Below, one piece after another: positions 7,560 to 25,440 of a stretch of 64,000 nucleotides of DNA (position 1 is its first letter; each line of letters starts with the position of its first letter). The position numbers were made by a program, and so were the translations under genes. The stretch is from Rhodothermales bacterium (GTDB taxonomy: Bacteria; Bacteroidota; Rhodothermia; Rhodothermales; UBA10348). The notes below the pieces were generated by a model. The model had not been told where the DNA came from and searched no databases. It saw only the letters and a program-made list of their open reading frames with translations. The DNA lies in NCBI GenBank assembly GCA_028284865.1, contig JANQQV010000018.1:124001-188000 (forward strand). Direction: 5' to 3'.

Positions 7560-8399
7560 TCAACCAATATGCATCTGAAGCTCTTCGCGACGATGCTTCT
7601 GACGAAGCTTGCGGAGGGCTTTCTCCTTGATCTGACGAACACGCTCACGAGTCAGTCCGAAGCGCTGCCCGATCTCCTCGAGCGTCAACGGGTGTTCGCG
7701 ACCGATACCAAAGTACAGGCGCGTGATCTCGGCTTCGCGAGGATGCAGCAGACTGAGGGCGCGCTCGATGTCGATCTTGAGCGACTCGTCCATCAGCGTG
7801 TCATCCGGCTTGATGTCTTCGTCATCGGGAAGGACATCCAGCAGGCTGTTGTCATCGTCCTCGTTGAACGGAGCGTCCATCGAGAGATGACGGCCCGTGT
7901 GCTGGAGGGCTTCGCGGATCTTGTTGACGTCGACTTCCAGCTCGGTGGCCAGCTCCTCAATGTTGGGCTGGCGCTCGTGGATCTGCGCGAGCTTGGCGCT
8001 CGTCTTGCGGATCTTCGAGATCGTTCCAATTCGGTTGAGCGGCAGTCGGACTACGCGGCTCTGCTCGGCAAGCGCCTGCAGAATGGCCTGGCGAATCCAC
8101 CAGACGGCGTAGGAGATGAACTTGAACCCACGCGTTTCATCGAAACGCTGGGCAGCCTTGATCAGACCGTAGTTTCCTTCATTGATCAGGTCAGCAAGCG
8201 TGAGACCCTGGCCCTGATACTTCTTGGCCACCGAGACCACGAAGCGAAGGTTGGCTCTCGTCAAACGATGCAATGCATCCTGGTCACCCTGCTTGATCTT
8301 CTGCGCTAGATCGACCTCTTCATCGGGAGTCAGCAGTGGAATCTGACCGATCTCCTGAAGATACTGGTCCAGCATGCGCTGCTGGCGTGGGACGTACAT
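7560..8399 (-). CDS. rpoD: Primary sigma factor, Bacteroidota short RpoD/SigA type
   Basis: A 279-residue group 1-like sigma-70. Region 1.2 starts at [20 protein letters not shown]. Region 2 is textbook, with [34 protein letters not shown] and region 2.4 [18 protein letters not shown]. Region 3 follows, and region 4.2 ends in [20 protein letters not shown]. Region 1.1 is absent and the protein is under half the length of E. coli RpoD. This is the known form of the primary sigma factor in Bacteroidota, where it recognises promoters with a TTTG-type -33 element and a TAnnTTTG -7 element. It is monocistronic with its own strong terminator; about 190 bases of non-coding DNA lie upstream. Confidence 0.95.
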
Positions 8400-8588: not shown

Positions 8589-10133
8589 TTACGGATTGTT
8601 TCCTGAAATTTTCAGTAGGGCATCCGCAATTTCCCGTCCCTCGCTCATTCTCGGGACCTTGGTCTGGGCACTCACGCGCTTCTTGGTTTGCTGCAACCAC
8701 TCGAAAAATGTCCCTCGATGTAGCGACGAGATCTTCGGGGGCAGGAAGGCTTGGGCCTCGCGGCGAATCACGTAGTGTCGGTTGATCTCCTGGAGATGAC
8801 GATCGATGACGTTCGAGAACGCCTCCACGTCTGACGGCGGCTCGTCAAACTCGATGCACCACTCGTGGCCGGGCAACGAAGCCTGTGATGCCGGGATGGG
8901 AGCGATGTGGTAGTTGGTGGTCTGAGCACCGGTTTCCTCACAGGCCTTCTCGAGCGCCTTGCGGGCCTCATCGCCATACACTGCTTCGCCATAGGTGTCG
9001 AGCACCTCATTCGTACGGCCCGCCACGACCAGTCTAAAAGGATCGGTCGATGTGAACTTGACGACATCACCGATCTCGTAGGCCCAGAGGCCGCTGCACG
9101 TTGAGACGAAAATGCGATAACGCACACCGGTCTCGACACCCTCGATGGACACCCGGGGGCCGCTGCCATCTACCGGCTCGAATTCGAAAAACACACCAGT
9201 GTCCAGATGGACCAGCATGTCATCGGCATTCGGGTTGTCCTGGAACGAAACGTATCCCTCGCTCGCGCCATAATTCTCGACGAAGTTGACCGATCCGCCA
9301 ATCTGCTCCTCGAGCAAGGTTTTGTACGAAGACAACGCGACACCACCTGAGAAGAACACTTCCAGGTTGGGCCAGATTTCGGACACCGTCGTCGCTGAGT
9401 CGCCATTCAGCTTGTTGTGGTGAGCGATCAACTTCCTGAACAGGACCGGGGCCCAGGACGGCACCATGGCCATCGCCCGGATGTTCATGTTGTAGGTGTG
9501 CTCGACAATGGCGTCCAGTTTTTGCTCCCAGTTCGGTAGGAAGAGGATGTCTCGCGGCACCGCCTGATAGAACTTCCGGATCACCGCAGGAGTGACCAGG
9601 AATTGCAGGCCGGATACTTCACCGATCCACGATCCGGGATGTTCAGGGTCATCCTCTATGCGGCCGGGGATCGACAGCAGTCGTCCGAACAGGAAAGAAG
9701 GATCCGCTACGGACTTGAAGTACGACATGGCCACGGCCATCGTGAAGCGGCGATTCACGTCCAGCATGTCCTGGGAGAGCGGAATGATCTTTCCGGCGGA
9801 AGCCGTTCCCGACGAAACGGCGAAGTGTTTGAACTCTCCTGGCCAGATGATGTCCTGTTCGCCCTTCCGGATGCGATCTACATCGCTGCGATACGCGTCA
9901 TAATGGTGAAACGGTACGCGCTCTTGATACAGACGCACAGGGTCCGAAGCATTCGCAATGTCTGAAAACCCGAATCGCTTCCCCCACTCCGTCCCGGAAG
10001 CTTTCCGGGTGAGGTCCTTGAGCAACCGGACCTGAGTCCCCACCGGGTCAGCCTTGAACGATCGGATGACCTGTAAGGGAGATATGGACGAGGGTCGGCG
10101 GACCTTGTCAATGACCGGAAAATTGAACGGCAT
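8589..10133 (-). CDS. GH3-family acyl-adenylase/amidotransferase-like protein
   Basis: A 514-residue protein of the GH3 family. Plant GH3 enzymes adenylate carboxylic acids such as auxin or jasmonate and conjugate them to amino acids; bacterial members are widespread in Bacteroidota but their substrates are unknown. Family landmarks are HFAVSSGTASAGKIIPLS (ATP-binding Ser/Thr loop, about residues 97-114), VENYGASEGYVSFQ (about 285-298), the GLWAYEIGDVVKF motif and VAGRTNEVLDTYGE (hinge to the C-terminal domain), and a conserved C-terminal Lys in LPPKISSLHRGTFFEWL. Length matches bacterial homologues (500-515). It is divergent from folP with about 120 bases between the starts. Confidence 0.88.
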   Translation of the reverse strand: MPFNFPVIDKVRRPSSISPLQVIRSFKADPVGTQVRLLKDLTRKASGTEWGKRFGFSDIANASDPVRLYQERVPFHHYDAYRSDVDRIRKGEQDIIWPGEFKHFAVSSGTASAGKIIPLSQDMLDVNRRFTMAVAMSYFKSVADPSFLFGRLLSIPGRIEDDPEHPGSWIGEVSGLQFLVTPAVIRKFYQAVPRDILFLPNWEQKLDAIVEHTYNMNIRAMAMVPSWAPVLFRKLIAHHNKLNGDSATTVSEIWPNLEVFFSGGVALSSYKTLLEEQIGGSVNFVENYGASEGYVSFQDNPNADDMLVHLDTGVFFEFEPVDGSGPRVSIEGVETGVRYRIFVSTCSGLWAYEIGDVVKFTSTDPFRLVVAGRTNEVLDTYGEAVYGDEARKALEKACEETGAQTTNYHIAPIPASQASLPGHEWCIEFDEPPSDVEAFSNVIDRHLQEINRHYVIRREAQAFLPPKISSLHRGTFFEWLQQTKKRVSAQTKVPRMSEGREIADALLKISGNNP

Positions 10134-12791: not shown

Positions 12792-13091
12792 CTAATTCGA
12801 TTCTGTCGCCGGCTTCCAGCTTCCACTGGTGTGGTCAACCCGGTCCACAACGCCCACGATTGTGGCATCGGTGGGCGTCAACTGCGGCTTGAAAGGCACC
12901 GTGGCTTCTGTCGAGGAGACGTAGATGACTGTATCGCCCACACCGGCATCGACAGTATCCAGCGCCACGATTCGCCCGCCGATCTCTTTGCCCGAGAACG
13001 TGTGGGGCTGCACAAACAGCATCCGCTGCCCTTCCAGACTTCCATCCTTGCGCGTTGCCCACACCCGTCCGGTGACTTTACCCAGGTTCAT
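12792..13091 (-). CDS. BMC-P (EutN/CcmL-type) microcompartment vertex protein, divergent copy
   Basis: A 99-residue EutN/CcmL (Pfam EutN_CcmL) domain. It opens MNLGKVTGRVWATRKDGSLEG, the family hallmark, followed by ALDTVDAGVGDTVIYVSS and DATIVGVVDRVD. Family proteins form pentamers that cap the vertices of icosahedral protein shells. Compared with the neighbouring copy, the GSSAR segment is lost (SSTEAT) and the C-terminus has about 12 extra residues (SGSWKPATESN). It is last in the run membrane GGDEF-like protein, deoB, BMC-P, BMC-P, separated from its paralogue by nine bases. No shell hexamer (BMC-H/T) gene is in the window, so its structural role is open. Confidence 0.9.
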   Translation of the reverse strand: MNLGKVTGRVWATRKDGSLEGQRMLFVQPHTFSGKEIGGRIVALDTVDAGVGDTVIYVSSTEATVPFKPQLTPTDATIVGVVDRVDHTSGSWKPATESN

Positions 13092-13100
13092 GATGGCGGG

Positions 13101-13367
13101 TCAGGGCGTGTCGAGCTTGTCAACGATGGCCGTAATCACGGCATCAACGGGCTTGTTGCGCGTCAATTCGGTCTGACGGGCACTGGAGCCCTGGGCAAAC
13201 AGCACCACCTCTCCCACACCGGCTCCGACACTGTCGACGCAAACCACGACCCGGCTCTTGTCCTTGCCGTCCTCATCAATCTCCCGGACCAGCTGGAGCT
13301 TCATGCCTTTGAGCTGGTCATCCTTGCGGGTGGCCCAGACGGTGCCGATGACTTTTCCGAGGATCAT
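13101..13367 (-). CDS. BMC-P (EutN/CcmL-type) microcompartment vertex protein, canonical copy
   Basis: An 88-residue EutN/CcmL domain close to the family average in length. It has [43 protein letters not shown] and [14 protein letters not shown], which match characterised vertex proteins such as CcmL, CsoS4 and GrpN. It is the first of two tandem copies, 27 bases after deoB and nine bases before the second copy, all on the minus strand. Phosphopentomutase and deoxyribose-phosphate chemistry occurs near some catabolic microcompartments, so a link to nucleoside or pentose breakdown is possible. Without hexamer genes here, either the shell is encoded elsewhere or the pentamers act alone. Confidence 0.92.
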
Positions 13368-13394
13368 GTCTACCTGGAGGAGTGGTTCTATCTG

Positions 13395-14555
13395 TCAGAA
13401 CGATTCGAACGACGTTCCGCCGAATGATTCGTCCAGCCCGAAGAACGCCGCAACGGTCGCCGCATGGTCCACGAAGGATGTGCGGGTACCGAGATCGGCA
13501 GAGCCGGACGCTCCATAATACAAAAGGGGTACGTACTCACGGGTGTGATCCGTGCCGGGAAAGGTCGGATCGTTGCCATGATCAGCCGTGATCACCAAAC
13601 GAGCGCCTGCTGGCAACGAATCGACGATGTCCGGAAGGGCCCGATCGAACTCCTCGAGGGCTGCGGCGAAACCATTCGGATTATTCCTGTGGCCGTACTC
13701 CTGATCGAAATCGATGAGGTTGGTCCAGACGAAACTCGGGCCTTCTGCTTGCTGGATCTCCCTGATGGTGGCAGCGATGCCGTCGGCGTTCCCTGAGGTC
13801 TTTATCGTTCGATCGAATCCAACGCCGCCGAACAGGTCGGCCACTTTGCCCACAGAAACCGTAGCGACACCCTTTTCTTGGAGCATCTGTTGTACCGGAG
13901 TCGCTTCGGGAAGACGTGAGTAGTCTTTCCGCTTGCCTGAAATACGAGACCAGGCACCAGGTGAACCCTCGAACGGCCGAGCAATCACACGACCGACTCC
14001 GTGCGGTCCAACACAGACCTCATTCCGGGCGAGTTCGCACAACCGGTACAGCTCGTCCAACGGCGTCGTTTCAACATGTGCCGCTATCTGGAAAACGCTG
14101 TCAGCCGATGTGTACACGATCGGCAACCCCGTTCGCTGGTGCACTTCGCCGAACTCGTCGATGATGACCGTGCCTGATTCCGGGCGATTCCCAAGAATGC
14201 CGTCGACCCCGGCCCGCTCGCAGAAGTCCTGCACGACAGCTTCGGGAAACCCGTCTGGGTAGACTGGAAACGGCTCTGCCAGCGTCAGGCCTGCCAATTC
14301 CCAATGGCCCGTTGTTGAGTCCTTCCCTGCAGAGTGCTCCTGCATCCGACCCCAGGAGGCCAAGGGTGCAGTGTCTGGGGGTACTCCAATCAACGCGCGG
14401 ATACGACCCAGGCCAGCACGCGAGAGATTGGGGAGAGACGGATTGCAGGTGGCCAGCACATGTCCGAGCGTGTCGGCGCCACGATCGGCGTATCGATCAG
14501 CATCAGGCTGCCACCCGATTCCCACGCCATCCAGAACGATGGTGACGAAGATCAT
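13395..14555 (-). CDS. deoB: Phosphopentomutase
   Basis: A 386-residue alkaline-phosphatase-superfamily enzyme that interconverts (deoxy)ribose 1-phosphate and 5-phosphate in nucleoside salvage and catabolism. Metal ligands and motifs are visible: VLDGVGIGWQPDAD (D9), KDSTTGHWE (the phosphorylated Thr is T81 or T82), FVWTNLIDFDQEYGHRNNP, VITADHGNDPTF and DHTREYVPLL. Length fits the family (385-410). It lies four bases after the GAF/GGDEF-like gene and 27 bases before two BMC-P genes, so it is probably part of that operon. No deoA, deoC or deoD gene is in the window. Confidence 0.95.
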   Translation of the reverse strand: MIFVTIVLDGVGIGWQPDADRYADRGADTLGHVLATCNPSLPNLSRAGLGRIRALIGVPPDTAPLASWGRMQEHSAGKDSTTGHWELAGLTLAEPFPVYPDGFPEAVVQDFCERAGVDGILGNRPESGTVIIDEFGEVHQRTGLPIVYTSADSVFQIAAHVETTPLDELYRLCELARNEVCVGPHGVGRVIARPFEGSPGAWSRISGKRKDYSRLPEATPVQQMLQEKGVATVSVGKVADLFGGVGFDRTIKTSGNADGIAATIREIQQAEGPSFVWTNLIDFDQEYGHRNNPNGFAAALEEFDRALPDIVDSLPAGARLVITADHGNDPTFPGTDHTREYVPLLYYGASGSADLGTRTSFVDHAATVAAFFGLDESFGGTSFESF

Positions 14556-14559
14556 GCGT

Positions 14560-15906
14560 TCACCCTACGATGACGCACTCGCCGGACTGGAAGGACTCTT
14601 GCAGGGCCGCCGTTGCTTCGGAACGCAATTGGTCCGCTCCTTCATGGCGGTCCTGGAGAGGAGCCACACCGACGCTTACGCCGCCCTCGAAGGAATCATC
14701 TTCTTCAGGGAAGGCCTCCTTGATCCCGGATGCCCAATCGGCCAGGGATTCGTGTGATCCGTGGTAGAAAATGCCGTACGTGAGTTCGCCGAAACGCTCG
14801 ACTCGAGCATCGAGGGCCACGGATCGCAGGCGGTCCGAGAACAGGTCCTCAAGATCATCGACGTCGGCTAAGCCGTCACCGGAGAGCGCTTCTCCGCGGT
14901 TCAGATAGACCAGCGCCAGCGACAATGGGTGCGACAGCGAGCGAGCCTGCTCCATTTCATCGGCGATGATCTCACGCCGCGGGCGTGGCTCTTCGGACTC
15001 CTCGTCGGCCGAGGCGGAGGTATCGATCGTATCAAGAATGGTCGTGGCCAGTCGCGCATATTGCTCAAGCAGCACGCGAACAGAGGCAGCCTCCAGACCA
15101 TCCTCGTTGACCGTGTCGACAACGAGGAGAAACAGGTCGTCGTACTGCTTCGGAATGACGGGAACGATGGCGACCTGGCGCACATTGATCGGCTCGTGGT
15201 AATAGCCCAGCTTTGCTTTCGGGAAGCCGTTGGGACCGACCCTTGGGTAGACGACGGGTACCAGCGCCTTGTGGCCGGAAAGCATGGGTTCTTTCGCCGA
15301 ATACGTACCGCCGCCGCGGGCATAGGAATTCTGGCTGACCATGACTTCCACTTCGTAACGAAGCGGCACGTCCTCCTGGCGCAACAGGCATACGGTGTAG
15401 GCATCGAGGGAGGCCCGCAGCGAGCGAAGGGCAGGAATCAGCACATCTGCTTTGGTCTCAGACGAGGCCTCGGACACCATGATCCGGGCACGCGGGCGTC
15501 GTTGACGGGCTTTGGAAACACCGGCAACGTGGGCCTGGGCAGCCGTCGGAGAGACCGATCGGTCCTTGGCTTTTGTCGCGGTTTCGACGACCTCGGCTTC
15601 GCCAGCGTCTTCAGCCGTTTCTTCGATGTCTGAAGCGGTCTGCGGGGTCGTCTCTCCGTCTTCTTCTCCGGCCCCTTTCGGCTTGATATCGAGAATGCCC
15701 AGGGACGCAAGATCTTCATCTGGCTGCTCGGGCGCCTGCATGAATGTCTCTGGGACATCCTTGTGACGACGACGCATGTTCATGGTCACCAACAACCCAG
15801 CCCCGATGAGCAGGGCCAGCGCAAGCAGATACAACATCGGTTGTCCGAGCACGATGGCCAACGCAATCGAGACCACAGCAAGGATGATGAAAAGGACTCG
15901 CAGCAT
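14560..15906 (-). CDS. Membrane-anchored GAF-like protein with degenerate GGDEF domain
   Basis: A 448-residue protein I recognise only by domain shape. Two N-terminal helices (LRVLFIILAVVSIALAIVLG and MLYLLALALLIGAGLLVTM) are followed by an acidic, low-complexity linker (about residues 50-150). A GAF-like sensor domain lies at about 155-305 (LIPALRSLRASLDAYTVCLL to LLEQYARLATTILDTI). The last 130 residues look like a GGDEF domain: AHPLSLAL-type strand (SHPLSLALVYLNRGEAL), RFGELTYGIFYHGS where a cyclase would have GG[D/E]EF, and FEGGVSVGVAPL. The missing signature means it should not make c-di-GMP and might instead bind nucleotide or protein. I start at ATG 15906 because the longer frame to 15972 places 22 polar residues before the first helix. 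Confidence 0.7.
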   Translation of the reverse strand: MLRVLFIILAVVSIALAIVLGQPMLYLLALALLIGAGLLVTMNMRRRHKDVPETFMQAPEQPDEDLASLGILDIKPKGAGEEDGETTPQTASDIEETAEDAGEAEVVETATKAKDRSVSPTAAQAHVAGVSKARQRRPRARIMVSEASSETKADVLIPALRSLRASLDAYTVCLLRQEDVPLRYEVEVMVSQNSYARGGGTYSAKEPMLSGHKALVPVVYPRVGPNGFPKAKLGYYHEPINVRQVAIVPVIPKQYDDLFLLVVDTVNEDGLEAASVRVLLEQYARLATTILDTIDTSASADEESEEPRPRREIIADEMEQARSLSHPLSLALVYLNRGEALSGDGLADVDDLEDLFSDRLRSVALDARVERFGELTYGIFYHGSHESLADWASGIKEAFPEEDDSFEGGVSVGVAPLQDRHEGADQLRSEATAALQESFQSGECVIVG

Positions 15907-16435: not shown

Positions 16436-16737
16436 CAAGCTCGGAATTGGCCTGCGGAAATGAACAGACCGGCCGATAACCGACTTCCCAAAGCTGGACC
16501 AGAAGTCTCGAAACGAACCACGATGCCCATTTCGAAAACCACCCTCAGTGGCCTGAAATGCAGATTCGACTGCTTCAAAATGAGACTGGCACGTCTTTTG
16601 ACAAAGTGTTTCGCGTGCGCCTGAAAGCGCCCTGTTCCACCAAACATCCCCTCACAATGCGACTCGATCTGTTCCCCACCCCAGCTGCTGCAACCCCTGC
16701 ATGCCGCACCCCTCGGTCCAGATCAGTCGAAACCATC

Positions 16738-19700
16738 ATGCGTTCCAACTCCCCCGTTTCCGGAAACATGCACGTTCCATTCTTTGCTCTCCTGCTCTCG
16801 ATCATGATGCTTGCCTCGGCCATGATGCCAGGTACGGCTTCTGCCCAGCAGGACCCGAACGACGTCCTCTGCTACCTCTCAGCCGACAACGACGGCTTCA
16901 ACAGTAGCAACGACGGTATCACGTTCGTCAACCAGGCATTCTCAGAAACGGCGCTCGGTTTGACCGGCACCCGCTCCATCGAAGCCATCACCCGCGTTCC
17001 TTCTACAGGTAAGCTCTACGCTGCTGACGGTGGCGACTTCGGTGAGATCGATCTCACTGATGGCGACTTCACCGAGATTGGCTCGTTCGGCTCCGGAGAT
17101 GGTGCTCAAGGCGAGATCGACTTCGAAGATGTCGACGGCCTCGCTTGGGACCCGTTCACACAGACCATGTATGGATCCGCCCGCCGCTCCGGCGGAGAAG
17201 ATGATGTCCTGTTCATTCTGGACATCACCACGGGTGAGGTGATCGAGGATGCATTTGGTGCAGGCGTCGATTACATCGTAGTGGAGAAGATCAATGGCCT
17301 CGATGATATCGATGACATTGCCATCTCCACGGACAATGGCATGATGTACGCCATCCAGAACACGAACGGCAATGACAGCCGTCTCATCACGATCGACAAG
17401 GCAACGGGGGCCACGACGGATATCGGTGATCTGGATGTACCCAATGTAGAAGGCCTGGCCTTCCACCCGGACGGTCGCTTGCTGGGAGTCAACGGGGACT
17501 CCTTCCGCAGCGTAATGCAGATTCCGCTGAACCCATTCAGCAGCACGACGATTCCAATCTCGAATCTTGGCGTCAACAACTGGCGCGACTATGAAGGTAT
17601 CGCTTGCTTGAGTGAACCTGACAACACGATCCAGGGATCGGTATTCGGTGATCCTGATCGCATCGACCTGGAGCTGGAAAAAACTGCACAGGTCACGCCA
17701 GGTCAGGCATCTGACGCTGTCGAATACACCATCACGGTGACCAACGACAATCAGAATCCCGTTCAGGGCGGCAACCCCGTTTCCGGTTCTGCTCTTGCCG
17801 GTGTTACTGTCCGACTCTATCGCGACAAAGGCACTATTGGTATCTGGGATCCGGCTGACGAATTCGTGGCTGACACACAGACGGCCCTCAACGGATCGTA
17901 CGAATTTGTCGTTTCGGCAAACGGTGCGTTCATCGTTCGCGTTGATCTTTCCACGATCACCAACAATGCCTACGATCCGACGGACAACGAAGAAGCGCTC
18001 TCCTTTGCCGGCTTCGGCGAAACGTCCTCGGGCAATGACTTCGCTTTCTACCAGTTCACGGACGCCGACAACATCATCGTATCGGATGTCCTTCCTGCTG
18101 GTGCCTCCTACGTATCCGATACACCTTCACAGGGTTCGTTCAACAGCGGAAACGGCAGCTGGGATGTGGGCACGATCGCTCCAGGTGCTTCAGCATCGTT
18201 GGTGATCAATGCTACAACAACAGTGAACGGTCAACTGGAGAACTGTGCTGAGGTCCTGCAGGCCGGCGAAATCGATATCGATTCCCTTCCAGGCAACGGT
18301 GTCAAGAACGGTGAAGACGATCAGGACTGCGCCCCGACCCAGCATGATCGTCCTGATCCCGACATTGACCTTTCACTGGAAAAAACAGCAGACGTACAAG
18401 AAGCTGGTCTGGGTGACACGATTGTCTACACCCTGACTGTGACCAATGAGAGCTCGGAAGACGCGACGGATGTCTTCGTTACGGACTCACTGCCCTACGG
18501 TGTCAGCTTTGTCAGCTCAACTCCGGCCGCAGCCTACGATTCCGGTGATCACACGGTGACCTGGAACGTCGGCGATGTAGACGCCGGTCAGAGCAAGAAT
18601 CTGGAAATCGAAGTAGTCTTTGACGGCTTCAGCGGCAACATGCCGTCCTCCATGTTCCTGGCTGATGGCGAGTATCTGCTTCGCAACCACCCGGATGGCA
18701 ATGCCCAGCCGCCGCTCTACGGCCTGCGCCTCGACGAGCTCTTCGGTGGTTTCGGTACCATCACCTTCGACTTCAACCACCCGCAGTCTGACATGCGCAT
18801 GACGCTGTCTGAAAGCGGTGCCACGGCTGTGATCTCCGGTACCACCTGGGGTGGCGCAGACGTCGGTGGTTCCTACGACCATGCCGGTCTCTGGAATGTC
18901 TCGTTCACATTCGACGATGTCCTTTCCAACTATCCGAGCGACGATGACCTCGCTGCACTTGGTGGCGACGCCGAGATCAGCTCCGGATTCATCACTCCGC
19001 TGTACGACACGGCCTGGTTCACTTCTGGCAACTCCTACCAGTTGTCGGACAAAGAATCTGGTGGATACTCATTCCGCCTGGGCGATCGTTCGGACGACAA
19101 TGGACATCGCGGTCATGATGGTATCTCCGGCTGGGGATGGCTGAATCACGATGGTGATGGCGTCCTCGACCACAAGCATACCTCGGACTTCCTGTTCACG
19201 GCTTATCCGATCCCGGACATGCTGGAGAACTGCGCCGAGATTACGGCTGCGGGTCAGAACGATTCGGACTCCACACCCAACAACGCACCTCCGTTCGATG
19301 CAGAGGATGACGACGCATGCGTGCGCGTCCCACGCATGGAAGAGGATCCTGAGGTCGACATCGAAGTCGAGAAGACGGCCAGCACGCTGTCTCCCGAGTT
19401 CGGCGAAGCCTTCACTTACACGATTACGGTTTCCAACCTCGGACCGGATGAGGCCACCAACCTGGTCATCACGGAATTCCTGCCTGCCGGCGTCTCGTAT
19501 GTCTCGCACGTGGAAAGCCTCGGCACCTGGGATGAGGGCACCGGTCTCTGGTCCATCGCATCCCTGGCTGCAGGCGCATCAGCGACGCTTGATATCACCG
19601 TCACGGTGGATGGCGTCTCCGGTTCGCTCTCCAATGGCCAGTACCTGCTGCACAACCATCCTGGCAACGACATGGCGCCTCCGGGCTACGGTCTGCGTCT

Positions 19701-22700
19701 TGATGAGCTGTTCGGTGGTCTGAAAGGCATCACCTTCGACTTTGACCATCCCGACTCCGAGGTCATCATGACCATCGATGGTGACGATGTAGTCATCGAC
19801 GGTGTTGTCTACGGTGGCCATGACGTGGGCGCTGCCTACGATCCAGCTACGGAAGGTCTGTGGAATGTCCACTTTGAGTACAATAATGTGGTCACGAGCG
19901 TACCGGGTGATGACGATCTGTATGTAGAGGATGCCAACGCTGGCGTCAGCACAGGAACGATCGTTCCCCAGTACACGACGGCTTATTTCACCGCTGGTGA
20001 GGTCTTCGACCTTCTCGACAAATCGGACGGATCCTTCTCCTTCCGCCTCGGCGATGAAGACAACGACAACGGCTATAATGGCTACGACGGCATCAGTGGC
20101 TGGGGCTGGCTCATGCACGGCCAGAATGGCAACCTCGTGCATGCTCCGATCTCCGATTGGCTCTTCACGGCCGCACCGATCGTCAGCAGCATCGAGAACT
20201 GTGTCGAGCTTACGTCAGTGACGGAAGACGATGTCGACTCGACTCCGAACGACGGACAGGGCGACGATTACTCCTGCATCACGATCACACCGGGCGACCC
20301 GGCCGTTGATCTGTCGCTCGAGAAAGATGTCGACCAGAGCGAAGCCTCTGTTGGCGATACGATCTTCTACACGTTGACCGTGTCCAATGACGCCAACGCA
20401 GGAACGACAGCTACCAACGTTCTCGTTCAGGATGTCCTTCCTGAGGAACTGCTCTTCGTCGACACCACGCCGTCCTCCAACGTCTCCTATGACGCTGGCA
20501 CGCGCACGCTGTCTTGGCTGATTCCAGCCATCGCACCGGGTGATTCCTATGAGCTGGAAATTGAAGTCCAGATCATCGAAGACGGATTCATCTGCAACTG
20601 TGCCCAGGTCGTGAGCGCTGATCAGCAGGACGTCGACGATATCTACGGCGACGATACGGGTGAAGACTACGATTGTGCTGTGACCACCACGGACGAGCCG
20701 TTCATCGACCTCTACGTCGACAAGCAGGCCTATCCGACCAATCCTGGTCTCGGTGATGTCGTGGACTACACGATCACGGTCCGCAACGACGGTGCTGCCA
20801 CGCAGACCGCCTACGGTATCCAGGTCGTGGACAACGTGCCTGCTGGCATGAGCATCCAGTCGACCAACCCGACGACCAACGTTGCCGTGAACAACGCAAC
20901 GAATGTTGTCAGCTGGCTCATCCCGAGCCTGGCACCAGGTGATGAGGTTACCCTCCACATCTACGCCCAGGTCAATGAGCCGGGGCAGTGGGAAAACTGC
21001 GCCGAGATCATGGCCGCACAGGGCAATCCATTGGATTCCACGTTCGGCAATGGCACGGGGCAGGACATCGACTGTGTCACGACTGACACGCCTGATCCGA
21101 CCATTGACCTGAGCCTGGTCAAGACGGTGGACAATACCAACCCGGCCATCGGCGACGAAATCATATACACGCTCACGCTGACCAACAGCCCTGACGCCAC
21201 CGAAGACGCAACCAACGTCATCGTGGAAGATCATCTGCCGGCTGGTGTCAGCATCGATCCGGGCTGGAGCGCCTACGAAGTGACCGTCAATCCAGGCGGA
21301 CACATCGTTTGGGAAGCTGGAACGCTCGAGATCGGCGAAGTCGAAATCATCAACATCCCTGTCACGGTCAACGTCAACGCCATCCAGCAGAACTGTGCTG
21401 AAATCACGGCACACGATCAGGACGACGTGGACTCTGTTCCTGGCAACGGCGTCGGAGCCGGCGAAGACGATTCGTCCTGTGTGACGATCACGCCGAACCT
21501 GAATCCGCCGAACCTGATGTGCTACGTGGTCGCTGACAACGAAGACCACACGGGCAGCGCAGACGTGCTGACCTACATCAAGGGCAACGGCCAGGAAGTA
21601 TCCATTGGCCTGACCGGTACGAACAACATCAACGCCATCGAGTACGTCGGCGCCAACAGCAAGCTCTACGCAGTGGATGGCGGCACCTTCGGTACGCTCA
21701 ACCCAGGCAATGGACTGTTCTCACCGATCGGCTCGCTTGGCAGTGGCCAGGGTGCTCTCGGTGGTCAGAACTTCGACAGCATAAGCGGCATGGCGCTGGA
21801 TCCCTACACGGGCGTCCTTTACGCTACGGTCCGCAAGGCCGGTGCTGATCTGCTCATCCAGATCAACCTGCTCAACGGACAGGCAGTCACGAATGCCTTC
21901 GGCCCTTCCATGACCTACGTCGTCATTCCGGCCGTCTCCGGTGCGGATGAAGTTGACGACATCGCCATCCACCCGAACACGGGCGAGATGTACGGTGTAG
22001 TCAACGGTGGTGGCGTCAGCCGACTGATCACCATCGACAAGGCAACGGGTGCTTCGGCGCTGACAGCCAATATCGATGTCGCATCGGTCCGCGGCCTGGC
22101 CTTCCGCTCGAATGGCCAGCTGCTCGGTACGCTGGGATCGACGACCAACGAAGTTCGCCGCATCAACCTGAATACGGGCGCGACGACGCTGGTCTCGAAT
22201 CTGGGCATCAACGGCAACTTCGACTATGAAGCCATCACCTGTAACACCAATGTCCCGAACACGCTCAGTGGTACGGTTTACCTCGACAACAACGAGGACG
22301 CCAACCTGGACGCAGGCGATGTTGGCCAGAGCGGTGTGACGGTTGAGCTGTGGCGAGACAAGAACAGCAATGGCGTCCTTGACGGCCCGGACTACCTGGT
22401 AGGCACGCTGGTAACGGATATGGATGGCTTCTACGCCTTCCAGGTCCTGACGAGTGGCTACTACATCGTCCAGACCGATCTGGGTACGTACCCAGCTGGT
22501 GCAGCCTTGACGACCGACAACATCGAAACGGCCCACTTCCCGGGTTACGGCGATGAAGACACGGGCAATGACTTCGGCTTCAAGCTGGAGCCTGTCGTCC
22601 TCGGTTCGATTGGCGATGAGGTCTTCTCCGATGACAACGGCAATGGTGTCCGCGACAACGGTGAAGGTGGTCTGACCGGAATCCTGGTACGCCTCTATGA

Positions 22701-25440
22701 CGGCGCTTGCCCGGCAGCAGGAACACCCCTCGCCACGCGCGTCTCCAACCTGAGCGGTGGGTACGACTTCACCATGCTGCCTGCGGGTACGTATTGCGTG
22801 GACGTTGACAACGCTACGGTACCGGCTGGCTACGCACTCACGACGGCCAACGACCCGATGACGGTCGTGATTGGCAACGGTGAGGACTTCGACCTGGCTG
22901 ACTTCGGATTCTACTTCGATCCACAGGCCGTCGAGGCTGATCTCGAACTGACCAAGGAAGTCGACACGAGCTCACCGGCTCTCGACGACGTGGTCGAGTT
23001 CACCATCACGGTGACCAACAACGGTCCTGCTGATGCCACGGGCCTCATCGTCCGCGACATCATCCCTGTCGGTCTCGTCTTCCAGGACTACGAGTCCACG
23101 AATGGAACGTACGAAGCCAACAAGCTGGGCTACTGGACCATCGGCGATCTGCCTGTCGGACAGACGGAAACGCTGAAGATCCGCACAAAAGTGGTCATCA
23201 CGAACATGATCGAGAACATCGCACAGGTCTCGCATGTGGATCAGGAAGATCCTGATTCCACACCAGGCAACGGTGTACCGACCGAAGATGATCAGGACAA
23301 CGCGCTCGTCGAGAGCCGTGGACCTGGCTCTGTTGGCGACATCATCGCTGTTGAGTGCGCGGATCTCGGTACGGTCAATGCTCTGCAGTACAGCACCTTC
23401 GACGACCAGATCTACGCTGGTACGGAGATCGGTACCGTCCACATCTCCAATGATGATGGACAGAACTGGCCTGCCTTCCTGAACACGGACAACGAAGCTC
23501 CGGTACGCGACATCGTCATCGATGGCAACGGCTGGGTCTACGTGGGCTCCTTCGGTTCGGGTGTCTACCGCTCGACCAACTCGGGCGACAACTGGACGAA
23601 CATCGGTCCGTTCGGTGGCAAGGTGAATGATCTGGACATCGACGACAACACCAACACAGCCTACGCAGCAGTAGAGGACGAAGTCCTTCGTCTCAACGGC
23701 CTCGTGTGGGAGACGGTTGGAGCAGGTACCAACCCGTTCGCGGGTGATCAGGTACTGGCTGTTGTCTACCAGGAGACGAACAACACCGTGCTTGCCACGT
23801 CGGCAGCCAGTGGTACGTGGGTCTTCTCGGGCGGTGTATGGTCATCTGCAGACATGGGACTGCCGACCGGCAAAGTCAACGTTCTCTACCGCAGCCCGGA
23901 CGGAATCGTCTTGGCCGGTCACAACAACAGTGGTGTGTTCATGTGGGGCGGCGGCTCCTGGATGCAGCTGGGTCTTGGCCTGGACAATGAGCCGATCGAA
24001 TCGATCGGGTCGGGTCCGAATGGTGAGATCCTTGCTGGATCCCGCGAAACGGGTGCCTACTTCCTGAACAAGATCACAGGTGAGTGGCTGTCCATCGGTA
24101 ACCTGCCGGTCTTCACGGTGAGCGCCATGACGGGCGGTCCAACCGGTGAAGTGTACGCAGGTGCGCCGGGCGAAGGCATCTACGTCATCTATGACCAGGA
24201 CTTCGACGGTATCCCGGATATCGCACACCAGGTCGCCAACTTCATGACGAGTGCCATCATCCAGGACCTCGTCGTGGCACCGAACGGTGACATGTGGGCA
24301 GCGACTTACGGCTACGGCATCCTCTACTCGAGCGATGGTGGTAACTGCTGGACGCGCATGAACCGTGGTCTGGACAACCTCTGGACGTTCGCCATCGACC
24401 GTACATCAGACGGCACGCTCTTCATCGGCATCTGGGCCGACGGACTGGGTGGTATCTGGCGCTCGACGGACGACGGCCGCAACTGGGAATTCCTGGCCTA
24501 CGGCACGCGTCAGATCATCTCGCTGGCTGTTGATCCGGTCGATGAGAACATCGTCTACGCCGGTGCGAACATCTCTGGCGAAGGCGCCCTCTTCCGCTCA
24601 ATGGACGGTGGTGACACCTGGAGCGAAGTCGGCAACTTCATCTATCCGGTCTGGTCGGTCACGGTTGACCCGAACGACAACAACCACATCTACGTGGGCA
24701 CGATGGGCGCGGGTATCTATGAGTCCTTTGATCAGGGCCTGACCTTTGATCAGATCGGCTCGCCGTCAAACGGCCTCGACAACCCGTACGTTTTCGACAT
24801 GGTCTACGCACCAGTCGGTACGCCGTACGCCGGACAGCTCTTTGCCGCTACCGACGCAGGAGTCTATCGCTACGACGCCTTCGCCGAGACGTGGTCCCTG
24901 TTCGGACTGTACAGCGAGAACTTCCAGTTCCGCACGATCGCCTTCACGGGCAACGAGATCTACGGTGGTACCTGGAATGCCGGTGTCGTCCAGTACAATG
25001 CTCTGACCAACGAATGGAATGACTTCGGTCTCTCCGACATGCCGGTCATTGCCTTTGCAGTACACCAGCAGACGGAAACGCTGGTCATCGGTACGAGTGG
25101 TGCAGGTGTCTTCCTGGCTCCGAACATGAAGATCTCCACGAACACCGAAGACGAATTCGGCGGAAGCGAGATTCCAACCTCGTTTGCTCTCGAGCAGAAC
25201 TATCCGAACCCGTTCAACCCGCAGACGACCATTCCATTTGATCTGCGCGAGACCTCGCGCGTGACGATGGCGGTCTATGACATGCTGGGTCGTCAGGTCG
25301 GCATGCTGGTCGACGGCATGATGCAGGCTGGCACGCATCAGGTGACATGGGATGCAGGCGATGTACCGAGCGGTACGTACCTGGTCCGCATGGAAGCTGG
25401 TGGCCAGACGTTCACGCGGACAATGATCCTGCTGAAGTAG
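16738..25440 (+). CDS. Giant T9SS-secreted multidomain surface protein (DUF11, SdrD_B, propellers)
   Basis: A 2900-residue exported protein. The start at 16738 gives a signal peptide ending at ...PGTASA-QQ (residue 36); ATG 16768 is an alternative. Order: propeller-like domain (about 43-300); interleaved SdrD_B/DUF11 (300-535); DUF11 B and C, each carrying a nested domain with NHP and YGLRLDELFGG signatures (542-865, 872-1180); DUF11 D-F (1189-1590); second propeller-like domain (1594-1838) related to the first; two SdrD_B modules (1842-1950, 1955-2062); DUF11 G (2066-2195); a BNR/sortilin-like propeller with repeats such as GVYRSTNSGDNWTNIG (2202-2795); and a T9SS type A sorting domain from about 2811 with NYPNPFNPQTTIPFDL and GTYLVRMEAGG. 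It is probably anchored or released at the cell surface. Asp-rich loops suggest Ca2+ binding. Function is unknown; adhesion or matrix formation is inference. Codons favour C-ending synonyms, as in highly expressed genes. Confidence 0.9.
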   Translation: MRSNSPVSGNMHVPFFALLLSIMMLASAMMPGTASAQQDPNDVLCYLSADNDGFNSSNDGITFVNQAFSETALGLTGTRSIEAITRVPSTGKLYAADGGDFGEIDLTDGDFTEIGSFGSGDGAQGEIDFEDVDGLAWDPFTQTMYGSARRSGGEDDVLFILDITTGEVIEDAFGAGVDYIVVEKINGLDDIDDIAISTDNGMMYAIQNTNGNDSRLITIDKATGATTDIGDLDVPNVEGLAFHPDGRLLGVNGDSFRSVMQIPLNPFSSTTIPISNLGVNNWRDYEGIACLSEPDNTIQGSVFGDPDRIDLELEKTAQVTPGQASDAVEYTITVTNDNQNPVQGGNPVSGSALAGVTVRLYRDKGTIGIWDPADEFVADTQTALNGSYEFVVSANGAFIVRVDLSTITNNAYDPTDNEEALSFAGFGETSSGNDFAFYQFTDADNIIVSDVLPAGASYVSDTPSQGSFNSGNGSWDVGTIAPGASASLVINATTTVNGQLENCAEVLQAGEIDIDSLPGNGVKNGEDDQDCAPTQHDRPDPDIDLSLEKTADVQEAGLGDTIVYTLTVTNESSEDATDVFVTDSLPYGVSFVSSTPAAAYDSGDHTVTWNVGDVDAGQSKNLEIEVVFDGFSGNMPSSMFLADGEYLLRNHPDGNAQPPLYGLRLDELFGGFGTITFDFNHPQSDMRMTLSESGATAVISGTTWGGADVGGSYDHAGLWNVSFTFDDVLSNYPSDDDLAALGGDAEISSGFITPLYDTAWFTSGNSYQLSDKESGGYSFRLGDRSDDNGHRGHDGISGWGWLNHDGDGVLDHKHTSDFLFTAYPIPDMLENCAEITAAGQNDSDSTPNNAPPFDAEDDDACVRVPRMEEDPEVDIEVEKTASTLSPEFGEAFTYTITVSNLGPDEATNLVITEFLPAGVSYVSHVESLGTWDEGTGLWSIASLAAGASATLDITVTVDGVSGSLSNGQYLLHNHPGNDMAPPGYGLRLDELFGGLKGITFDFDHPDSEVIMTIDGDDVVIDGVVYGGHDVGAAYDPATEGLWNVHFEYNNVVTSVPGDDDLYVEDANAGVSTGTIVPQYTTAYFTAGEVFDLLDKSDGSFSFRLGDEDNDNGYNGYDGISGWGWLMHGQNGNLVHAPISDWLFTAAPIVSSIENCVELTSVTEDDVDSTPNDGQGDDYSCITITPGDPAVDLSLEKDVDQSEASVGDTIFYTLTVSNDANAGTTATNVLVQDVLPEELLFVDTTPSSNVSYDAGTRTLSWLIPAIAPGDSYELEIEVQIIEDGFICNCAQVVSADQQDVDDIYGDDTGEDYDCAVTTTDEPFIDLYVDKQAYPTNPGLGDVVDYTITVRNDGAATQTAYGIQVVDNVPAGMSIQSTNPTTNVAVNNATNVVSWLIPSLAPGDEVTLHIYAQVNEPGQWENCAEIMAAQGNPLDSTFGNGTGQDIDCVTTDTPDPTIDLSLVKTVDNTNPAIGDEIIYTLTLTNSPDATEDATNVIVEDHLPAGVSIDPGWSAYEVTVNPGGHIVWEAGTLEIGEVEIINIPVTVNVNAIQQNCAEITAHDQDDVDSVPGNGVGAGEDDSSCVTITPNLNPPNLMCYVVADNEDHTGSADVLTYIKGNGQEVSIGLTGTNNINAIEYVGANSKLYAVDGGTFGTLNPGNGLFSPIGSLGSGQGALGGQNFDSISGMALDPYTGVLYATVRKAGADLLIQINLLNGQAVTNAFGPSMTYVVIPAVSGADEVDDIAIHPNTGEMYGVVNGGGVSRLITIDKATGASALTANIDVASVRGLAFRSNGQLLGTLGSTTNEVRRINLNTGATTLVSNLGINGNFDYEAITCNTNVPNTLSGTVYLDNNEDANLDAGDVGQSGVTVELWRDKNSNGVLDGPDYLVGTLVTDMDGFYAFQVLTSGYYIVQTDLGTYPAGAALTTDNIETAHFPGYGDEDTGNDFGFKLEPVVLGSIGDEVFSDDNGNGVRDNGEGGLTGILVRLYDGACPAAGTPLATRVSNLSGGYDFTMLPAGTYCVDVDNATVPAGYALTTANDPMTVVIGNGEDFDLADFGFYFDPQAVEADLELTKEVDTSSPALDDVVEFTITVTNNGPADATGLIVRDIIPVGLVFQDYESTNGTYEANKLGYWTIGDLPVGQTETLKIRTKVVITNMIENIAQVSHVDQEDPDSTPGNGVPTEDDQDNALVESRGPGSVGDIIAVECADLGTVNALQYSTFDDQIYAGTEIGTVHISNDDGQNWPAFLNTDNEAPVRDIVIDGNGWVYVGSFGSGVYRSTNSGDNWTNIGPFGGKVNDLDIDDNTNTAYAAVEDEVLRLNGLVWETVGAGTNPFAGDQVLAVVYQETNNTVLATSAASGTWVFSGGVWSSADMGLPTGKVNVLYRSPDGIVLAGHNNSGVFMWGGGSWMQLGLGLDNEPIESIGSGPNGEILAGSRETGAYFLNKITGEWLSIGNLPVFTVSAMTGGPTGEVYAGAPGEGIYVIYDQDFDGIPDIAHQVANFMTSAIIQDLVVAPNGDMWAATYGYGILYSSDGGNCWTRMNRGLDNLWTFAIDRTSDGTLFIGIWADGLGGIWRSTDDGRNWEFLAYGTRQIISLAVDPVDENIVYAGANISGEGALFRSMDGGDTWSEVGNFIYPVWSVTVDPNDNNHIYVGTMGAGIYESFDQGLTFDQIGSPSNGLDNPYVFDMVYAPVGTPYAGQLFAATDAGVYRYDAFAETWSLFGLYSENFQFRTIAFTGNEIYGGTWNAGVVQYNALTNEWNDFGLSDMPVIAFAVHQQTETLVIGTSGAGVFLAPNMKISTNTEDEFGGSEIPTSFALEQNYPNPFNPQTTIPFDLRETSRVTMAVYDMLGRQVGMLVDGMMQAGTHQVTWDAGDVPSGTYLVRMEAGGQTFTRTMILLK

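What the first reader, a model, noticed from the sequence alone, without database searches (positions are those of the whole stretch)
12792..15906. Orphan pair of microcompartment pentamer genes in an operon with phosphopentomutase and a degenerate GGDEF protein
Two tandem EutN/CcmL (BMC-P) genes, nine bases apart, follow deoB, which itself starts four bases after a GAF/GGDEF-like membrane protein gene. No shell hexamer (BMC-H/T) or encapsulated signature enzyme is in the window. The two copies differ: one has the canonical GSSAR segment, the other lost it and gained a C-terminal tail. Either the shell is encoded elsewhere, or these pentamers do something other than cap a shell, perhaps with pentose-phosphate metabolism. 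The fixed spacing suggests a functional unit.
Basis: partly seen in the sequence, partly recalled or inferred. Interest (0 to 1): 0.65.

Follow-up and report, generated by a model that had tools for sequence, protein, structure and literature searches.

The report
Vertex genes of a scattered microcompartment
These two genes encode corner proteins of a bacterial protein organelle whose other parts lie elsewhere in the genome; its two likely cargo enzymes point to breakdown of the DNA sugar deoxyribose, a job that fits the neighbouring gene and gives a testable function to a class of organelles listed in 2021 as having none.

Summary
In detail: deoB and two EutN/CcmL pentamer genes (P1, P2) follow a membrane GAF/degenerate-GGDEF gene at the stated spacings. 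The pentamers are not orphans. The same genome encodes two BMC-H hexamers, a third pentamer (P3) and an acetylating acetaldehyde dehydrogenase (AldDH) at three other places. In 114 genomes of the order (named relatives are Rhodothermales), pentamers occur in 52, hexamers in 49 and this AldDH in 48; hexamers and AldDH never occur without pentamers. The matching type is the 'FRAG' BMC of Sutter et al. 2021, listed there without a signature enzyme. The missing enzyme is probably DeoC: 29 of 29 sampled DeoCs from BMC-bearing genomes of the order have an N-terminal helix plus linker resembling an encapsulation peptide, the sampled BMC-free genomes lack that leader motif (0/18), and FRAG-like genomes in Ignavibacteria, Calditrichota and KSB1 have a comparable leader. 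AldDH has a matching C-terminal tail. deoB lies upstream of P1-P2 in 39 of 48 genomes of the order and 53 of 80 named loci. A clustered Gemmatimonadota SPU-type locus carries the same pentamer triplet with deoC and rpiB. Best reading: a dispersed deoxyribose-5-phosphate metabolosome. Encapsulation is inferred, not shown.

The parts
13101..13367 (-). P1, BMC-P (EutN_CcmL) vertex protein with GSSAR segment
   Evidence: PF03319 108.6 bits; best PDB match 5v74, EutN/CcmL-type pentamer; ortholog group
12792..13091 (-). P2, second BMC-P paralogue, 9 bases after P1
   Evidence: PF03319 90.1 bits; separate clade 100/100
13395..14555 (-). deoB, phosphopentomutase; no extra N- or C-terminal targeting tail seen by eye, so probably cytosolic
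   Evidence: NF003766 464 bits, TIGR01696 410 bits, both over cut-off
14560..15906 (-). membrane protein with GAF and degenerate GGDEF domains, first gene of the unit
   Evidence: fold match to GGDEF domains; proteins at the same place in Ignavibacteria have GAF x2 + GGDEF; degenerate site
7560..8399 (-). sigma-70 factor gene downstream on the same strand; in Ignavibacteria a homologous sigma gene follows P2 directly (orthology not tested)

Best explanation
The two genes encode vertex pentamers of a metabolosome whose parts are scattered over the chromosome: P1-P2 with deoB, P3 beside an AAA ATPase gene, two BMC-H hexamers beside ybbR, and the core enzymes AldDH and DeoC each alone. Proposed mechanism: DeoB converts deoxyribose-1-phosphate from nucleoside breakdown to deoxyribose-5-phosphate in the cytosol. 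[quoted passage not shown] Shown: gene content, co-occurrence, conserved linkage, and the tails on both enzymes. Inferred: encapsulation, flux, substrate, and co-expression of vertices with DeoB.
For: Hexamers and a third pentamer in the same genome. In 114 genomes pentamers in 52, hexamers in 49, AldDH in 48 (one further 38% hit, in G020, set aside); no hexamer or AldDH without pentamers. AldDH resembles acetylating acetaldehyde dehydrogenase TIGR02518 (541 bits, cut-off 620). A DeoC leader motif in 29/29 sampled BMC+ DeoCs of the order, 0/18 BMC-, 25/28 in FRAG-like genomes outside it. AF2 of own DeoC: helix 4-26, linker 27-44 under pLDDT 50, then barrel. Conserved C-terminal tails of AldDH across phyla. 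deoB upstream of P1 on the same strand within 5 kb in 39/48 genomes and 53/80 named loci. Locus L268 joins cdd, P1, rpiB, P2, P3, deoC and a pyrimidine nucleoside phosphorylase gene; its pentamers fall in the same three groups.
Against: deoB is not obligatory: the single-contig, 99% complete genome G019 has shell, AldDH and tagged DeoC but no deoB. No PduL in 114 genomes, so CoA recycling in the shell is unexplained. A hydrophobic-moment test of the tails was not informative. Calditrichota genomes G132 and G138 have leadered DeoC but no AldDH hit at E 1e-60. Some BMC-free DeoCs have other N-terminal extensions. The leader motif was defined after viewing the alignment.
Confidence: 0.8

Rival explanations
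1. The shell is a real dispersed metabolosome built around the acetylating AldDH, but the acetaldehyde comes from another source (ethanol, ethanolamine, threonine cleavage); DeoC and deoB are incidental.
For: AldDH co-occurs almost perfectly with the shell; deoB missing from some BMC+ genomes; DeoC itself is near universal in the order (111/114).
Against: DeoC carries the leader motif in BMC+ genomes and not in BMC- ones; clustered loci outside the order join the same pentamers with deoC.
Confidence: 0.12
2. The deoB-P1-P2 linkage is inherited synteny without functional coupling, as P3 next to an AAA ATPase gene seems to be. (Compatible with the best explanation for the organelle itself.)
For: The AAA gene is in 108/114 genomes, BMC or not; the block also holds a GAF-GGDEF gene and, in Ignavibacteria, a sigma factor gene; gaps of up to 4.8 kb in some families.
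Against: Same order and strand from Rhodothermales to Ignavibacteria and Calditrichota; deoB makes the substrate of the tagged DeoC.
Confidence: 0.3
3. The pentamers act outside any shell, for example in pentose-phosphate metabolism.
For: No BMC-H gene next to them; G104, G027 and G013 have pentamers without detected hexamers.
Against: Those three are drafts (72-92% complete), and G013's match is a fragment; 49 of 52 genomes have both, never hexamers alone.
Confidence: 0.03

Closest known systems
FRAG bacterial microcompartments (Sutter et al. 2021, PMC8217296)
   Same: Shell genes at several places, BMC-P triplet, AldDH, occurrence in Ignavibacteriae and related phyla, Gemmatimonadetes and Planctomycetes.
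   Different: The paper names no signature enzyme for FRAG1-7; here DeoC with an EP-like leader is proposed, and the deoB linkage is described. Subtype not assigned.
SPU (sugar phosphate utilization) BMC (PMC4207490, PMC8217296)
   Same: DeoC aldolase, AldDH, orthologous pentamer triplet, deoxyribose breakdown.
   Different: SPU genes are clustered with RpiB; here they are dispersed, RpiB was not tested, and deoB sits with the pentamers.
HO BMC (Haliangium ochraceum)
   Same: Pentamer triplet; the paper notes a pfam01791 enzyme elsewhere with an EP-like N-terminal extension in some HO genomes; P1's best PDB match is 5v74, whose entry also holds chains labelled HO-5815.
   Different: Myxobacterial and oligoflexian loci have hexamer, P1 and a more distant AldDH (29-33%) together and no deoB.

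Membership tests
FRAG BMC | shell genes at several genomic locations without one main locus | tested here: met
   P1-P2, P3 and BMC-H pair on three different contigs
FRAG BMC | BMC-P triplet (three distinct paralogues) | tested here: met
   Three pentamers falling into three groups; P2 and P3 clades 100/100; the paper's clade colours could not be mapped
SPU BMC | DeoC-type aldolase (pfam01791), presumed cargo | tested here: met
   DeoC gene on contig 10 with EP-like leader; encapsulation itself not shown
SPU BMC | RpiB-type isomerase (pfam02502) | not tested
   No genome searches left; seen only in other organisms' loci such as L268
SPU BMC | enzymes and shell genes clustered in one locus | tested here: not met
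   Dispersed
Canonical metabolosome | pfam00171 AldDH | tested here: met
   Contig 9, TIGR02518-like but under its equivalog cut-off
Canonical metabolosome | PduL-type phosphotransacylase | tested here: not met
   0 of 114 genomes; other phosphotransacylases not tested
EutN_CcmL (BMC-P) | PF03319 domain over curated cut-off | tested here: met
Phosphopentomutase DeoB | equivalog score over cut-off | tested here: met
Active diguanylate cyclase | GG(D/E)EF active-site motif | tested here: not met
   'ERFGELTYG' at the site in the window protein; similar in relatives

The most novel reading that the evidence does not exclude
FRAG microcompartments of Rhodothermales, Ignavibacteria, Calditrichota, KSB1 and Chlorobi-like bacteria form one widespread deoxyribose-5-phosphate organelle, a dispersed SPU, in which vertex proteins are made together with DeoB, so that shell closure may be matched to the supply of DNA-derived sugar, possibly under the GAF-GGDEF membrane protein.
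Probability: 0.55. Interest if true: 0.7.

Novelty: new variant of a known kind. Interest (0 to 1): 0.62.

Why it matters
FRAG BMCs were catalogued from shell genes alone and left without a signature enzyme; the 2021 catalogue expected environmental correlations to reveal their function. Looking for targeting leaders on enzymes encoded elsewhere gives a specific candidate, DeoC, with substrate deoxyribose-5-phosphate and intermediate acetaldehyde. Stygiobacter electus, a named strain, carries deoB, P1, P2, tagged DeoC and tailed AldDH, so direct tests are possible. It also shows that a working organelle may be missed when only gene clusters are searched.

Tried and rejected
AAA ATPase next to P3 as a BMC component: rejected, it is in 108 of 114 genomes. 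Class I fructose-bisphosphate aldolase near P3 as signature enzyme: not favoured, it matches the ordinary enzyme (NF006707) with no leader seen by eye; co-occurrence not tested. PduL as part of the core: absent. Hydrophobic moment as proof of encapsulation peptides: uninformative; a PduP peptide recalled from memory also failed. A cluster upstream of the hexamers in relatives (c23) was suspected to be AldDH by size but reads as a polytopic membrane protein. The Rfam scan of the window gave nothing.

Full report
Observation. The four genes are as described, all on the - strand: membrane GAF/GGDEF-like protein (15906-14560), deoB (14555-13395), P1 (13367-13101) and P2 (13091-12792), with gaps of 4, 27 and 9 bases. 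P1 and P2 are clear EutN_CcmL proteins (108.6 and 90.1 bits against a cut-off of 25). DeoB passes NCBI's equivalog cut-offs. The upstream protein has no family match of its own; its model matches GGDEF domains, and proteins at the same place in Ignavibacteria score as two GAF domains plus GGDEF. Its active-site segment reads ERFGELTYG, so cyclase activity is unlikely.

The pentamers are not orphans. The genome (3.48 Mb, 97.7% complete) has two BMC-H genes on contig 18 beside a ybbR gene, and a third pentamer on contig 26 beside an AAA ATPase gene. No further BMC-domain gene was found. A search for aldehyde dehydrogenases gave six genes; one, on contig 9, resembles acetylating acetaldehyde dehydrogenase (TIGR02518, 541 bits, under its cut-off of 620; best solved relative 5j78) and ends in a long tail closing with LSQDRIDQIAAQYRKS.

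Co-occurrence. Over 114 genomes of the order, pentamers are in 52, hexamers in 49 and this AldDH in 48, with no hexamer or AldDH outside the pentamer set (a 38% AldDH hit in G020 was set aside). Fisher p values near 1e-28 ignore shared ancestry. Better evidence are contrasts within families: in family f3, G015 and G017 have all three, G013 only a pentamer fragment, and its other genomes none; in f5, G021 has all three and G020 none. The AAA ATPase is in 108 of 114 genomes and so is not a BMC part. PduL is in none.

Signature enzyme. deoB is in 63 genomes, 45 of them BMC+, and upstream of P1 on the same strand within 5 kb in 39 of 48 genomes with a P1 place. That pointed to DeoC, which uses DeoB's product. 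DeoC is in nearly all genomes, but its form differs. Sampled BMC+ DeoCs of the order begin with a leader like MNxxEKxxIVxRLxARY, a variable linker, and a GAxRxG segment before the barrel (29 of 29). The leader motif was absent from 18 of 18 sampled BMC- DeoCs; family f11 and genus g12 have little or no leader, while family f13 has a different extension and G012, G013 and G016 have what may be relics. The motif was chosen after viewing the alignment. AlphaFold of the own DeoC gives helix 4-26, a linker (27-44) under pLDDT 50, and a confident barrel, matching the published description of encapsulation peptides (15-20 residue helix plus flexible linker, PMC8217296).

Beyond the order. A scan of named genomes with P1 gave 80 loci. 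deoB lies upstream on the same strand within 5 kb in 53, in Rhodothermales, Ignavibacteria, Melioribacteraceae, Calditrichota, Chlorobiaceae and others; some of the rest have contigs too short to tell. In 30 chosen genomes outside the order, DeoC was found in 29; 25 of 28 readable ones have the leader motif, two more have a variant of it by eye, and one (L311, genome G140) lacks it and also lacks AldDH. AldDH was found in 27 of 30, mostly at 46-60% identity, with tails ending in segments like GISEEEIQKIIKEFSK. In Gemmatimonadota locus L268 the order is cdd, P1, rpiB, P2, P3, deoC, pyrimidine nucleoside phosphorylase, the SPU arrangement; its pentamers fall into the same three groups as those of the window's genome. 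Three Planctomycetota loci also join the pentamers with deoC.

Interpretation. The features match the FRAG type: shell genes at several sites and a BMC-P triplet. The 2021 catalogue lists FRAG1-7 among types lacking an obvious aldehyde-forming enzyme, although it made a similar remark about EP-bearing pfam01791 enzymes for the HO type. I found no paper in the held library that assigns DeoC to FRAG; supplementary tables could not be read, so prior notice there is possible.

Weak points. Encapsulation is inferred. The hydrophobic-moment test was uninformative. deoB is dispensable (absent in G019, a one-contig genome). CoA recycling is unexplained. Whether deoB and P1-P2 share a transcript, and whether the GAF-GGDEF protein regulates them, is untested. 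RpiB was not searched for. Many genomes are drafts, so single absences mean little.

Noticed in passing
L006:9715-10155 (- strand): The second BMC-H has a conserved C-terminal tail (..LESMTVRELRALAR..IQGREIARANKxQLLxAL) in relatives of the sampled families, weakly like the Rho_N nucleic-acid-binding domain (E 0.04, below cut-off).
   Followed up: partly
L071:1477-3129 and relatives: The AldDH tail holds a second conserved segment (WMEEIEARLRERAGN) upstream of the terminal one, from Rhodothermales to Ignavibacteria.
   Followed up: partly
L295, L302, L307, L320 (DeoC leaders): DeoC leaders in several genomes outside the order carry Cys-rich motifs such as CAGCGYC or CCRDGICADNLC, purpose unknown.
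   Followed up: no
L229:9607-9990, L237:9601-9987, L262:9588-10001: In Ignavibacteria a PIN-domain protein gene, at times with a small gene before it, sits between deoB and P1.
   Followed up: no
L007:10512-10736 (+): A Phd/YefM antitoxin-like gene lies opposite the AAA ATPase gene near P3 and recurs in relatives.
   Followed up: no
window 16558-25440 (+): 2960-aa secreted repeat protein ending in what looks like a type IX secretion sorting domain (read by eye).
   Followed up: no
window 8589-10133 (-): 514-aa protein that looks like a GH3-family member (by eye), between the sigma factor gene and the pentamer block; conserved there in relatives.
   Followed up: no
G013, G012, G016 (L210, L202, L205): BMC-free f3 genomes whose DeoC keeps leader-like remnants; G013 also keeps a pentamer fragment, suggesting recent loss of the organelle.
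   Followed up: partly
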